DNA from: Myxococcota bacterium
GTDB lineage: Bacteria; Myxococcota_A; Bradymonadia; UBA7976; UBA1532
Reading direction: 5' to 3'
Assembly (NCBI GenBank): GCA_963169045.1
Contig: CAUJDF010000093.1
Span: 1 to 64,000 of the forward strand
Length of the DNA: 64,000 nucleotides
Shown: piece by piece, positions 25,695-47,400 of the stretch
Layout: each line of letters opens with the position of its first letter
How positions within the stretch are numbered: the first letter of the stretch is position 1
Made by a program: the position numbers and the translations under genes
The notes under the pieces: generated by a model
Databases searched by the model: none
Told to the model about the DNA's origin: nothing
Seen by the model: only the letters and a program-made list of their open reading frames with translations

Positions 25695-26357
25695 TCAACG
25701 GAAGGCGAAGATCCAGCTCACCGAGACGCCGAATGACCAGAAGGCCTCGGCGGGGTCCGTCGTCTCGAAGAGCACGTTGTCGGCCGAGTGCCCGACCTCG
25801 ACCCGCAACGGCTCGTGCCACCGCACGTCGCCGCGCAGCTGCAGCTCGCCGTCGAACGCCTCGCCGTCGGTGAGGCGCCAGCGCAGGCCGGCCTCGGGCC
25901 CGACGGCGAGGCTGTCGAGGTGCGCGTGGCCGATGCCCGACGACGCGGCCATGCGCTGCCACGAGGCCGCGCCGCCGGCGAAGAGCCGCAGGTCCGGCGA
26001 CAGGACGGGCACCCAGCGCACCGCGCCGCCCGCCTCGAAGGTGGACGAGCCGCCGACGTTGTCCTGCTGGCCGAAGTAGCGCTCCTCGACGTCGCCGATG
26101 GCGAGGCCGCCGACGGCGATCGACGCGTCGGCGCCGATCTCGAGCGCGGGGACCGGCTGGATCCCGCCGCTGATCTGCCAGCCGAGCTGGCCCGGCGACG
26201 TGTCGCTCTGCGCGCCGTACCCATCGGCGTCGGCCAGTGCCGCGAGGTCCACCTCGCCGGCGTGCCGGAACTGCACGCCCGTGCCCAGCTGCCACTCGAA
26301 CGCGTGCGCGCTCCCGGCGCACAGCAGCATGGCGACCACCCACCCCGACCGACCCAT
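25695..26357 (-). CDS. Predicted outer-membrane beta-barrel protein
   Basis: The 220-residue product starts at ATG 26357 (GGGAG upstream) with a signal peptide ending in S-A-H-A. The mature part is a series of short amphipathic strands (W-Q-L-G-T-G-V-Q-F-R, A-L-E-I-G-A-D-A-S-I-A-V, L-R-W-R-L-T-D) ending W-S-F-G-V-S-V-S-W-I-F-A-F-R, consistent with a small 8- to 10-strand barrel. No family is recognised. Its promoter region includes the 43-bp repeat array about 180 bp upstream. Confidence 0.75.
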   Translation of the reverse strand: MGRSGWVVAMLLCAGSAHAFEWQLGTGVQFRHAGEVDLAALADADGYGAQSDTSPGQLGWQISGGIQPVPALEIGADASIAVGGLAIGDVEERYFGQQDNVGGSSTFEAGGAVRWVPVLSPDLRLFAGGAASWQRMAASSGIGHAHLDSLAVGPEAGLRWRLTDGEAFDGELQLRGDVRWHEPLRVEVGHSADNVLFETTDPAEAFWSFGVSVSWIFAFR

Positions 26358-26383
26358 GGCTCGTTCTCCCGGAAGACGCCGCG

Positions 26384-26389: not shown

Positions 26390-26563
26390 CCGCGATTGCG
26401 GCGCGCTTGTGCAGCCGGCGTGCCGCGCCGCCGGACGCGGCGCATTGCGGCCCCGTCGCCCCGGCGTTCACGCCGGCGTGGCCGCCCGTTCACGCGTCGG
26501 CGGCGAGCGGCGACGCAAGGGCGCGCCGCCCGCATCGGAGACGGCGGCGGGCGACGAAGGGAT

Positions 26564-26778
26564 GGGCGTCGCCAGCGTCGGACACTGGCGCGACGGTGCA
26601 GTCGGTGGACGTCGCCCGTGTCGGACACTGGCGCGACGGTGCAGTCGATGGGCGTCACCAGTGTCGGACACTGGTGGGAGGAAACAATCCAAGGGCGTCG
26701 CCCGTGTCGGACACTGGTGGCAGGAAACAATCGAAGGGCGTCGCCAGTGTCGGACACTGGCGCGAGGAAAGACGGCCG
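26564..26778. repeat. Five tandem 43-bp repeats, each with a palindromic core
   Basis: Units start at 26564, 26607, 26650, 26693 and 26736, exactly 43 bp apart. Each contains a core of the form CCAGTGTCGGACACTGG (8-base arms, one central G) at 26572, 26615, 26658, 26701 and 26744. Cores 3 and 5 are perfect, and their dyad extends to 10-base arms. Cores 1, 2 and 4 have one arm mismatch. The 26 bases between cores are of two kinds: one with CGCGACGGTGCAGTCG (units 1-2) and one with AGGAAACAAT (units 3-4). Because these segments repeat, this is not a CRISPR. It lies upstream of both divergent promoters. Confidence 0.92.
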
Positions 26779-26848: not shown

Positions 26849-27583
26849 ATGCTCCGCCGCACCGTGTTCGTCCTTGCGCTGGCGCCTGCCGCGGCCGCCG
26901 CCGACATGCGCTTCGAGCTGGGCCTCCGCCTCGAGCTGCTCGACATCGACCAGCCCATCGCGTTCAGCTGCGACGAACCGTGCGACACCGAGGTCGACCC
27001 GGAGTGCGCCCTGGTGCCGCCCGAGCAGCTCTGCCGGGACGCGAGCCTCGACGTCCCGCACGACGGCTGGCTCTTCGGCGGCCTCGTCGGCCTGCACGTC
27101 GGACCGTCCTGGGCATCGGTCGGCGGGCGCCTCGTCGGCGCGTTCGGGCCGTTCGAGCCAAAGCGCGACCCCAACGCGCCCGAGGGCGCCACCGTCGACG
27201 GCGACGAGGGCGTCACGCTGGGGCACGTCACGCTCGAGCTGCCGATCGAGGTGCGCGCCGGCGTCGACGACACGCACGTCTACCTGCAGGCGGTCCCGCG
27301 CATCGGCGTCCTGAACTACCTCGACGGCCGCGACGAGGAGGCCGACACGTTCACCGCGGGGATCCTGTTCCTCGCCGGCTTCCGCTTCGGCCTCGACGAC
27401 GGCGCGGTCGGCGTCGGCGTCGGCCGCGTGAAGCACGCGTCGTTCGGCGGCTGGTACGGCGACGTCACGTGGCGCGGATCTCTCGAGGAGGCGCCCGAGT
27501 CAGGGGAGGTCGGTGGCGACGTCGTCGACGAAGACGGGGCCGCCGATGGCGTGCACCTCGGCGCGCACCGCGGCGGCGGGTAG
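26849..27583 (+). CDS. Exported protein, probable outer-membrane barrel
   Basis: The 244-residue product has a signal peptide (MLRRTVFVLALAPAAAAA) and a mature domain of amphipathic strands (M-R-F-E-L-G-L-R-L-E-L-L-D, W-A-S-V-G-G-R-L-V-G-A-F-G, V-T-L-E-L-P-I-E-V-R). Two cysteine pairs lie near residues 43-60. No known family is evident. The last 28 codons overlap the convergent gene at 27500, so the acidic C terminus may be a run-on of an eroded stop. Confidence 0.72.
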   Translation: MLRRTVFVLALAPAAAAADMRFELGLRLELLDIDQPIAFSCDEPCDTEVDPECALVPPEQLCRDASLDVPHDGWLFGGLVGLHVGPSWASVGGRLVGAFGPFEPKRDPNAPEGATVDGDEGVTLGHVTLELPIEVRAGVDDTHVYLQAVPRIGVLNYLDGRDEEADTFTAGILFLAGFRFGLDDGAVGVGVGRVKHASFGGWYGDVTWRGSLEEAPESGEVGGDVVDEDGAADGVHLGAHRGGG

Positions 27584-46156: not shown

Positions 46157-47400
46157 TCCTCGAGCGGGATCCGCTGTTCGACGTGGATGCGCTCGAGCAC
46201 GAGCTCGGCCCGGCCCACCGGCGCGTCCGAGTCGATGTGCTGCGTGCGGATGCGGCGGACCTCGAGCGTGAGCTCGTCGATGTCGGCGGGCAGCCACGCG
46301 AACGCCGCGGCGGGGATGTCGACGCTGCCGTCGTCGTCGGACACGCACACGACGATCTCGGGCATCTGGCTGTTGCGCAGCGCCACCTCGACGCGCGGCG
46401 CGTCGCCGGGCGCCCAGGAGACGGTGGTGCCCTGACGCTGGAAGGGCGCCTCGGCGTTCGGGGCGATCTCGGCGAGGTCGGCCGGGGCGGCGACGTTCGC
46501 CGCGAAGGCGCCCATGGTCGGACCGCCCTCGGCGGCGATGGCGATCATCTCGCCGCCGTTCCAGATGTCGAAGATCTCGTTCGGCGCGAAGGTGTATGCG
46601 CCGGCCTGGGCGTTGAACGTCAGGTCGATATCGGTGAGGCCGCCGCGCACCGTGATGTCGCCCGCGTCGGCGTCGGTGAACATGCCGGGATTGCCGGAGT
46701 CGTCGGCGTGATAGAGCGCGCAGTCGCCGGTCACGTCGCGGGGCATGGCGTCCGAAGGCTCGCTGCGGTAGTTGCGGAAGACGGCGCGCACCTCGGCGGT
46801 GACGTCGTCGAAGAAGCGACCGACCGTGAGCTTCTCGCTGAGGCGCACCTCGCCGCGCGTGTCGGGGGGTGGCTCGCCACCGCCGGCGCCGCCGTCACCG
46901 CCGGCGCCGCCGTCACCGCCGGCGCCGCCGGTTCCGCCACCGGCGCCACCCATCTCGCCGCCGAAGCCGCCGAAGCCGCCGCCCTGACCGCCGCCGCCTT
47001 CGCCACCGGCGCCACCGGCCGAGCCGCCGTTGCCACCCGAGCCGCCCGAGCCGCCCGAGCCGCCGTCGCCGCCCGAGCCGCCGGCGCCACCCTGACCGCC
47101 GGCGCCACCCTGACCGCCGGCGCCACCGGCCGAGCCGCCTTCGCCGCCAGCGCCGCCGGCCGAGCCGCCTTCGCCTCCAGCGCCGCCGGCCGAGCCGCCT
47201 TCGCCGCCAGCGCCGCCGGCCGAGCCGCCTTCGCCTCCAGCGCCGCCCTGCGAACCGCCACCGCCGCCGGCGCCGCCCTCACCACCCGAGCCGCCCTGCG
47301 ACCCGCCGCTGCCCCCGTTGAGGCCGTCCCCGCTGCTGCCCGTATCGTCACAGGCCGCGAACAGGACGACGGCGCCCGCGACCACCAGAAGCCGCTGCAT
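46153..47400 (-). CDS. Lipoprotein with long Gly-rich repeat linker
   Basis: The 415-residue product starts at ATG 47400 with a lipoprotein signal (M-Q-R-L-L-V-V-A-G-A-V-V-L-F-A-A-C, Cys17). Residues about 25-180 are a low-complexity G-G-x-G-G-x linker built partly from 10-residue units such as G-G-E-G-G-S-A-G-G-A. A unique C-terminal domain of about 225 residues follows, possibly a beta-sandwich (V-R-L-S-E-K-L-T-V-G-R-F-F-D-D-V). Such glycine linkers are typical of Myxococcota lipoproteins and let the domain reach away from the membrane. It is coupled to the solenoid protein downstream. Confidence 0.8.
   Translation of the reverse strand: MQRLLVVAGAVVLFAACDDTGSSGDGLNGGSGGSQGGSGGEGGAGGGGGSQGGAGGEGGSAGGAGGEGGSAGGAGGEGGSAGGAGGEGGSAGGAGGQGGAGGQGGAGGSGGDGGSGGSGGSGGNGGSAGGAGGEGGGGQGGGFGGFGGEMGGAGGGTGGAGGDGGAGGDGGAGGGEPPPDTRGEVRLSEKLTVGRFFDDVTAEVRAVFRNYRSEPSDAMPRDVTGDCALYHADDSGNPGMFTDADAGDITVRGGLTDIDLTFNAQAGAYTFAPNEIFDIWNGGEMIAIAAEGGPTMGAFAANVAAPADLAEIAPNAEAPFQRQGTTVSWAPGDAPRVEVALRNSQMPEIVVCVSDDDGSVDIPAAAFAWLPADIDELTLEVRRIRTQHIDSDAPVGRAELVLERIHVEQRIPLEE
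46878..46931. repeat. Three tandem 18-bp repeats in the Gly-rich linker
   Basis: The unit CACCGCCGGCGCCGCCGT occurs three times in a row, the last with one change. It encodes G-G-A-G-G-D/N-type hexapeptides on the minus strand. Confidence 0.75.
47131..47250. repeat. Four tandem 30-bp repeats in A-B-A-B order
   Basis: Units begin at 47131, 47161, 47191 and 47221. They alternate TCGCCGCC and TCGCCTCC at one position, so the real repeat is a 60-bp pair duplicated once. Each unit encodes ten residues of the Gly-rich linker (G-G-A-G-G-E-G-G-S-A). The end of the last unit diverges. Confidence 0.85.

What the first reader, a model, noticed from the sequence alone, without database searches (positions are those of the whole stretch)
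26564..26778. Five exact-period 43-bp repeats with palindromic cores and arm covariation
The sequence shows five units exactly 43 bp apart, each with a CCAGTGTCGGACACTGG-type dyad. In copies 3 and 5 the dyad extends to 10-base arms, and the outer bases differ in concert: CACC pairs with GGTG in copy 3, CGCC with GGCG in copy 5. This change keeps symmetry and suggests selection on the palindrome. A 43-bp step is close to four helical turns, so dimers bound at each site would lie on nearly the same face. The array sits upstream of two divergent envelope-protein genes. It could be a multi-site activator or silencer platform, a nucleoid-protein site, or a dispersed minisatellite.
Basis: partly seen in the sequence, partly recalled or inferred. 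Interest (0 to 1): 0.75.

Follow-up and report, generated by a model that had tools for sequence, protein, structure and literature searches.

The report
Intergenic 42-bp palindrome arrays in myxobacteria
The window holds one member of an apparently undescribed class of short intergenic DNA arrays: a palindrome repeated every ~42 bp (four turns of the helix), found in at least three lineages of one bacterial phylum, whose palindromes are conserved while the DNA between them drifts, which suggests rows of docking sites for a DNA-binding protein.

Summary
In detail: five 43-bp units at 26561-26770 plus a degenerate sixth at 26527, each centred on a 17-21-bp dyad (CGCCAGTGTCGGACACTGGCG). Within this array the 'arm covariation' is one compensatory pair change against several uncompensated ones. 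The same core forms two more intergenic arrays in the genome and is absent from 378 other phylum genomes. Relaxing the search to the GTCSGAC centre shows a larger class: two more arrays here (TGCAGGGTCGGACCCTGCA type), at least ten in one genome of the family and at least one in another (CGGGTCSGACCCG), and four in two single-contig genomes of a different class, probably Sandaracinus (GATGGGTCSGACCCATC). Spacing is 41-43 bp, arms differ between lineages but stay complementary, dyad arms vary about 2.5-fold less than spacers, and one array sits at the same locus in two species with different unit numbers. All arrays look intergenic but lie between convergent, tandem and divergent genes, so a promoter platform for the window's two genes is not supported. 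RAYT transposases are absent from the three carriers tested; spacers do not fold. Best explanation: a helically phased array of sites for a dimeric protein (centre fits the FadR/GntR consensus), architectural or insulating. The protein is unidentified.

The parts
26561..26770 (.). Array of five 43-bp units
   Evidence: period 43, 85% matches, no indels
26527..26547 (.). Degenerate sixth unit in register (CGCCCGCATCGGAGACGGCGG)
   Evidence: self-match 26516-26593
26570..26590 (.). Dyad 1 CGCCAGCGTCGGACACTGGCG, one broken pair
26613..26633 (.). Dyad 2 CGCCCGTGTCGGACACTGGCG, one broken pair
26656..26676 (.). Dyad 3 CACCAGTGTCGGACACTGGTG, perfect, with a compensated pair relative to dyad 5
26699..26719 (.). 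Dyad 4 CGCCCGTGTCGGACACTGGTG, two broken pairs
26742..26762 (.). Dyad 5 CGCCAGTGTCGGACACTGGCG, perfect; equals the consensus of the C74 and C75 arrays
26683..26731 (.). Spacers carrying GGAAACAATC(C/G)AA; the GGAAACAATCGAA form is shared in the same register (opposite strand) with the C75 array, marking common descent of the two arrays
25695..26360 (-). Left divergent gene, 221 aa, signal-peptide-like start, no Pfam family; homologues only in G209 and G058 (37% identity)
26849..27583 (+). Right divergent gene, 244 aa, no Pfam family; paralogue at C41:191976 without an array upstream

Best explanation
The array is a row of binding sites for a dimeric DNA-binding protein. Each 13-21-bp dyad centred on GTC-S-GAC binds one dimer (inferred). 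The 41-43-bp step, four helical turns, puts neighbouring dimers on nearly the same face so that they can assemble cooperatively into a nucleoprotein patch (inferred). The class is intergenic, interspersed and varies in unit number (shown), with the dyads conserved while spacers drift (shown). Because arrays lie between convergent, tandem and divergent genes alike, the patch more likely organises or insulates DNA (nucleoid-protein or topological-barrier role, like E. coli BIMEs) than activates a specific promoter (inferred). The centre fits the FadR/GntR operator consensus GTM-N(0-1)-KAC, so a GntR-type HTH dimer is the first candidate (a lead, not a test).
For: (1) Period: in own-family arrays the nearest GTCSGAC distances are 42 (47 times) and 43 (12 times), then near-multiples 84-86 and 126, and 21 (4 times). 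In the Sandaracinus-like genomes 42 of 43 steps are 40-43 bp. (2) Constraint: dyad-arm positions 4-6, outside the motif used for finding sites, vary less than spacers within arrays (about 0.11 against 0.27; Wilcoxon p=0.007, 14 arrays), most strongly in G178. (3) Compensated arm changes between arrays: at arm position 6 A-T, C-G and T-A types, 20 of 23 arrays paired against 8.8 after shuffling; position 4 22 of 23 against 17.0. (4) An orthologous array between two species with about 91% identical left flank, 14 against 8 units, dyads kept. (5) All arrays intergenic by codon-GC calls. (6) FadR-subfamily consensus NyGTM-N0-1-KACNy with conserved centre and variable periphery (PMC4494728); LldR box AAnTGGTCnGACCAnTT (PMC10272880). 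(7) Spacers fold no better than shuffles in most units, so RNA structure beyond the dyad is not selected.
Against: No binding protein was identified and no regulator gene was found among the flanking proteins scanned. Two arm types coexist in one genome (TGTC.GACA and GGTC.GACC), which needs two proteins or a tolerant one. Four C75 units carry a broken dyad. Only 8 of 379 phylum genomes have a GGTCSGACC triple, and some of those are unrelated repeats. Tandem duplication alone preserves a period. The GntR match is short: a palindromic centre fits it by chance about 1 time in 32. The control does not remove relatedness among arrays.
Confidence: 0.5

Rival explanations
1. A non-functional minisatellite: a palindrome-containing unit amplified by slippage or recombination, spread to a few sites, with period and palindrome simply inherited from an ancestral unit.
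For: Arrays are locally homogenised; unit number differs between orthologues; newer C75 units have broken dyads; a 13-bp spacer stretch is shared between C93 and C75; G058 arrays share composite units.
Against: Dyad arms are less variable than spacers; arms changed compensatorily between lineages; all arrays lie between genes; the same step recurs in two classes with different unit sequences.
Confidence: 0.27
2. A REP/BIME-like element acting as single-stranded DNA or RNA hairpin (transcript-end protection, Rho-linked termination, or substrate of a REP-type transposase).
For: Intergenic, often just 3' of stop codons or between convergent genes; opposed half-arrays in G058 C103 and C107; the window array folds better as ssDNA than shuffles, z -4.3; covarying arms also fit a hairpin.
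Against: No Y1_Tnp (PF01797) in G000, G058 or G209; no intrinsic-terminator signature; spacer pairing mostly not above shuffles; G-T pairs are rare among array consensuses; a fixed helical step is not needed by hairpins.
Confidence: 0.15
3. A promoter-proximal regulator platform controlling the two divergent genes of the window.
For: The array lies in the ~490-bp gap between two divergent genes.
Against: Other arrays are mostly not between divergent genes; flanking functions are unrelated; the right-hand gene's paralogue has no array; no sigma-70-like site found, although that scan covers only one promoter type.
Confidence: 0.08

Closest known systems
BIMEs / REP palindromic units (E. coli and other Gammaproteobacteria)
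   Same: Intergenic, interspersed, palindromic units in regular arrays, several next to gene ends; BIMEs bind IHF, DNA gyrase and Pol I (PMC2817692)
   Different: Mostly head-to-tail with a fixed ~42-bp step, not alternating doublets; no GTAG-type tetranucleotide signature; the three array-bearing family genomes tested lack a Y1 transposase; a handful to about a dozen arrays found per genome rather than >100 REPs
FadR-subfamily GntR operators (FadR, LldR)
   Same: Centre GTC-N-GAC fits GTM-N0-1-KAC; conserved centre with variable symmetric periphery (PMC4494728, PMC10272880)
   Different: 3-18 sites in strict phase, not promoter-restricted, no regulator gene found nearby
Chromosomal VNTRs / minisatellites
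   Same: Head-to-tail copies, unit number differs between orthologues
   Different: Dyad more conserved than the rest of the unit; class shared across genera and classes with compensated arm changes

Membership tests
REP/BIME with RAYT | REP-associated Y1 tyrosine transposase in the genome | tested here: not met
   PF01797 absent from G000, G058 and G209; the positive family genomes (G161, G242, G261) are not the array-rich ones
REP/BIME with RAYT | Intergenic regularly spaced palindromic units | tested here: met
REP/BIME with RAYT | Units in alternating orientation | tested here: inconclusive
   Mostly head-to-tail; some G058 arrays have two opposed halves
FadR/GntR operator | Palindrome matching GTM-N0-1-KAC | tested here: met
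   All 23 array consensuses contain GTCSGAC, but they were collected by that motif
FadR/GntR operator | Located at the promoter of regulated genes | tested here: not met
   3 of 17 divergent, 6 of 17 convergent
FadR/GntR operator | Bound by a GntR protein | not testable with these tools
   Needs a binding assay
CRISPR | Unique spacers between identical repeats | tested here: not met
   Spacers recur within arrays and the conserved part is only 13-21 bp; cas genes not searched
Intrinsic terminator | GC-rich stem followed by a T run | tested here: not met
   None found
Minisatellite/VNTR | Tandem units with variable copy number | tested here: met
   14 against 8 units at orthologous sites

The most novel reading that the evidence does not exclude
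These arrays are docking platforms of an undescribed chromosome-architecture or insulator system of the phylum: a dimeric HTH protein that has co-evolved with its site arms lineage by lineage and polymerises along sites phased every four helical turns.
Probability: 0.3. Interest if true: 0.78.

Novelty: new variant of a known kind. Interest (0 to 1): 0.55.

Why it matters
Large myxobacterial genomes have few described interspersed intergenic elements, and I found none matching this. A class with constant helical phase, conserved dyads and concerted arm changes gives a directly testable target for finding a DNA-organising or regulatory protein, and the probable Sandaracinus carriers are single-contig genomes of culturable species.

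Tried and rejected
Extended hairpin hypothesis (arm-spacer-arm folding of each 42-bp unit): attractive in C44 and C74, but spacer z-scores over about 50 unit types scatter around zero. Rfam: only weak chance matches far below the curated thresholds. Plasmids, phages and viral contigs: only weak chance matches or none. The exact 17-mer in genome contigs: 11 isolated single hits in unrelated taxa, no arrays. Coding repeats of 42 or 45 bp (multiples of 3) found by TRF were set aside as protein repeats. No positional orthology was evident between arrays of the window genome and those of G058/G209. Literature searches for the core sequences or for myxobacterial intergenic palindromic arrays gave nothing relevant.

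Full report
1. The observation. The array exists as described: five units 43 bp apart at 26561-26770, with ten core matches against 0.73 expected by chance. A degenerate sixth unit lies in register at 26527. Dyads 3 and 5 are perfect 21-bp palindromes; 1, 2 and 4 carry one, one and two broken pairs. The 'covariation' inside the array is therefore one compensatory pair change (dyad 3), of which dyad 4 shows only half. Taken alone it is weak evidence.

2. The same core elsewhere. GTGTCGGACACTGG occurs in the 9.0-Mb genome only in three clusters: the window, C74:93319-93418 and C75:89072-89338. With two mismatches allowed, 37 other hits are scattered singly, against 20 for the reversed-pattern control. 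C74 has three units of 43 bp. C75 has nine to ten units of 42 bp (one step of 43), partly degenerate. C93 and C75 share the spacer stretch GGAAACAATCGAA in the same register on opposite strands, so they are related by descent. The 17-mer is absent from 378 other phylum genomes, from IMG/VR, and appears elsewhere only as isolated hits. Distant BLAST searches of plasmids and phages gave only weak matches.

3. A wider class. Searching for three GTCNGAC centres 37-47 bp apart in 57 genomes of the class brought up further arrays: two more in this genome, C44:555317 (TGCAGGGTCGGACCCTGCA) and C58:125622, a degenerate one at C41:138858, at least ten in G058 and one in G209, both of the same family, with core CGGGTCSGACCCG. 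Several G058 arrays lie at contig ends, as expected of repeats that break assemblies, so the count is a lower bound. In 379 phylum genomes, triples of GGTCSGACC at 41-44 bp occur in 8; the clearest outside the family are G178 and G356, with GATGGGTCSGACCCATC at 40-43 bp. These are single contigs of 10,327,335 and 10,754,065 bases; from memory this fits Sandaracinus amylolyticus and a sister strain, which would make the phylum Myxococcota. That naming is recall, not a test.

4. What is conserved. The step is 42 (47 times) or 43 (12 times) in the family arrays, with near-multiples (84-86, 126) where an intermediate dyad is lost and four steps of 21. In G178/G356 42 of 43 steps are 40-43 bp, although spacers there contain one-base insertions and deletions. 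Within arrays, arm positions 4-6, which were not part of the search motif, differ between units at 0.11 on average against 0.27 for spacer positions (Wilcoxon p=0.007 over 14 arrays; in G178 about 0.03-0.07 against 0.40-0.45). Between arrays, arm position 6 is A-T in most arrays of this genome, C-G in most G058/G209 arrays and T-A in Sandaracinus-like genomes, and position 4 is T-A or G-C; 20 of 23 and 22 of 23 array consensuses pair there, against 8.8 and 17.0 when partners are shuffled between arrays. Relatedness among arrays is not removed by that control, but the three lineages are separate double changes. Spacers do not fold better than shuffled spacers in most units.

5. Persistence and place. 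An array 3' of a pyridine-nucleotide-disulphide oxidoreductase gene is at the same site in G178 and G356 (left flank about 91% identical) with 14 and 8 units and intact dyads. By a codon-GC gene caller written for this purpose no array overlaps a confident gene (one weak ORF in L182); of 17 with both neighbours called, 8 are between tandem, 6 convergent and 3 divergent genes. Neighbours are unrelated: kinases, topoisomerase I, CoA-transferase, ABC ATPase, MatE, SpoIID and others, with no transcription regulator among the flanking proteins scanned.

6. Interpretation. The combination of conserved dyad, free spacer, fixed four-turn step and concerted arm change is what a phased row of sites for a dimeric protein would show. 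The centre fits the FadR-subfamily consensus GTM-N0-1-KAC, for which a conserved centre and variable periphery are reported (PMC4494728); the LldR box is AAnTGGTCnGACCAnTT (PMC10272880). The match is short and only a lead. Lack of promoter bias argues for an architectural or insulating role rather than control of the two window genes. The main rival is a minisatellite with no function. A REP-type mobile palindrome is disfavoured by the absence of RAYT transposases in the three carriers tested, and an intrinsic terminator by the absence of T runs.

7. What is shown and what is inferred. Shown: the arrays, their period, intergenic position by gene calls, dyad constraint, compensated arms and one orthologous pair. 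Inferred: protein binding, cooperativity, GntR type and architectural role. Ascertainment: relatives were found with a GTCSGAC motif, so the constancy of the centre is partly by construction. A motif-free TRF scan of 1.65 Mb (own genome and G209) found 10-base dyad arms only in the C74 and C93 arrays; it did not flag the C75 dyads, so it is not exhaustive.

Noticed in passing
L011:3107-3143: Near the C74 array lies TACACGTACGTGTACTCGTTCTACACGTACGTGTACG, two copies of a palindromic, comparatively AT-rich element; not analysed.
   Followed up: no
L188:4900-5910: In G058 the largest array follows the topA gene directly, whose product ends in a lysine-rich histone-like tail; possibly coincidence.
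   Followed up: no
L131:17093-17418: Another tandem array in the window's genome with 34-, 54- and 112-bp periods (GCGCGTCAGCGCGC motif), periods not all multiples of 3; coding status not checked.
   Followed up: no
window 47104-47307: Coding-like minisatellite of 30/60/90-bp periods, all multiples of 3, presumably a Pro/Ala-rich protein repeat.
   Followed up: no
L188:5030-5910 and L189:5080-6030: G058 arrays built of two opposed halves (GTCCGAC units then GTCGGAC units with inverted spacers), a mosaic arrangement recalling BIMEs.
   Followed up: partly
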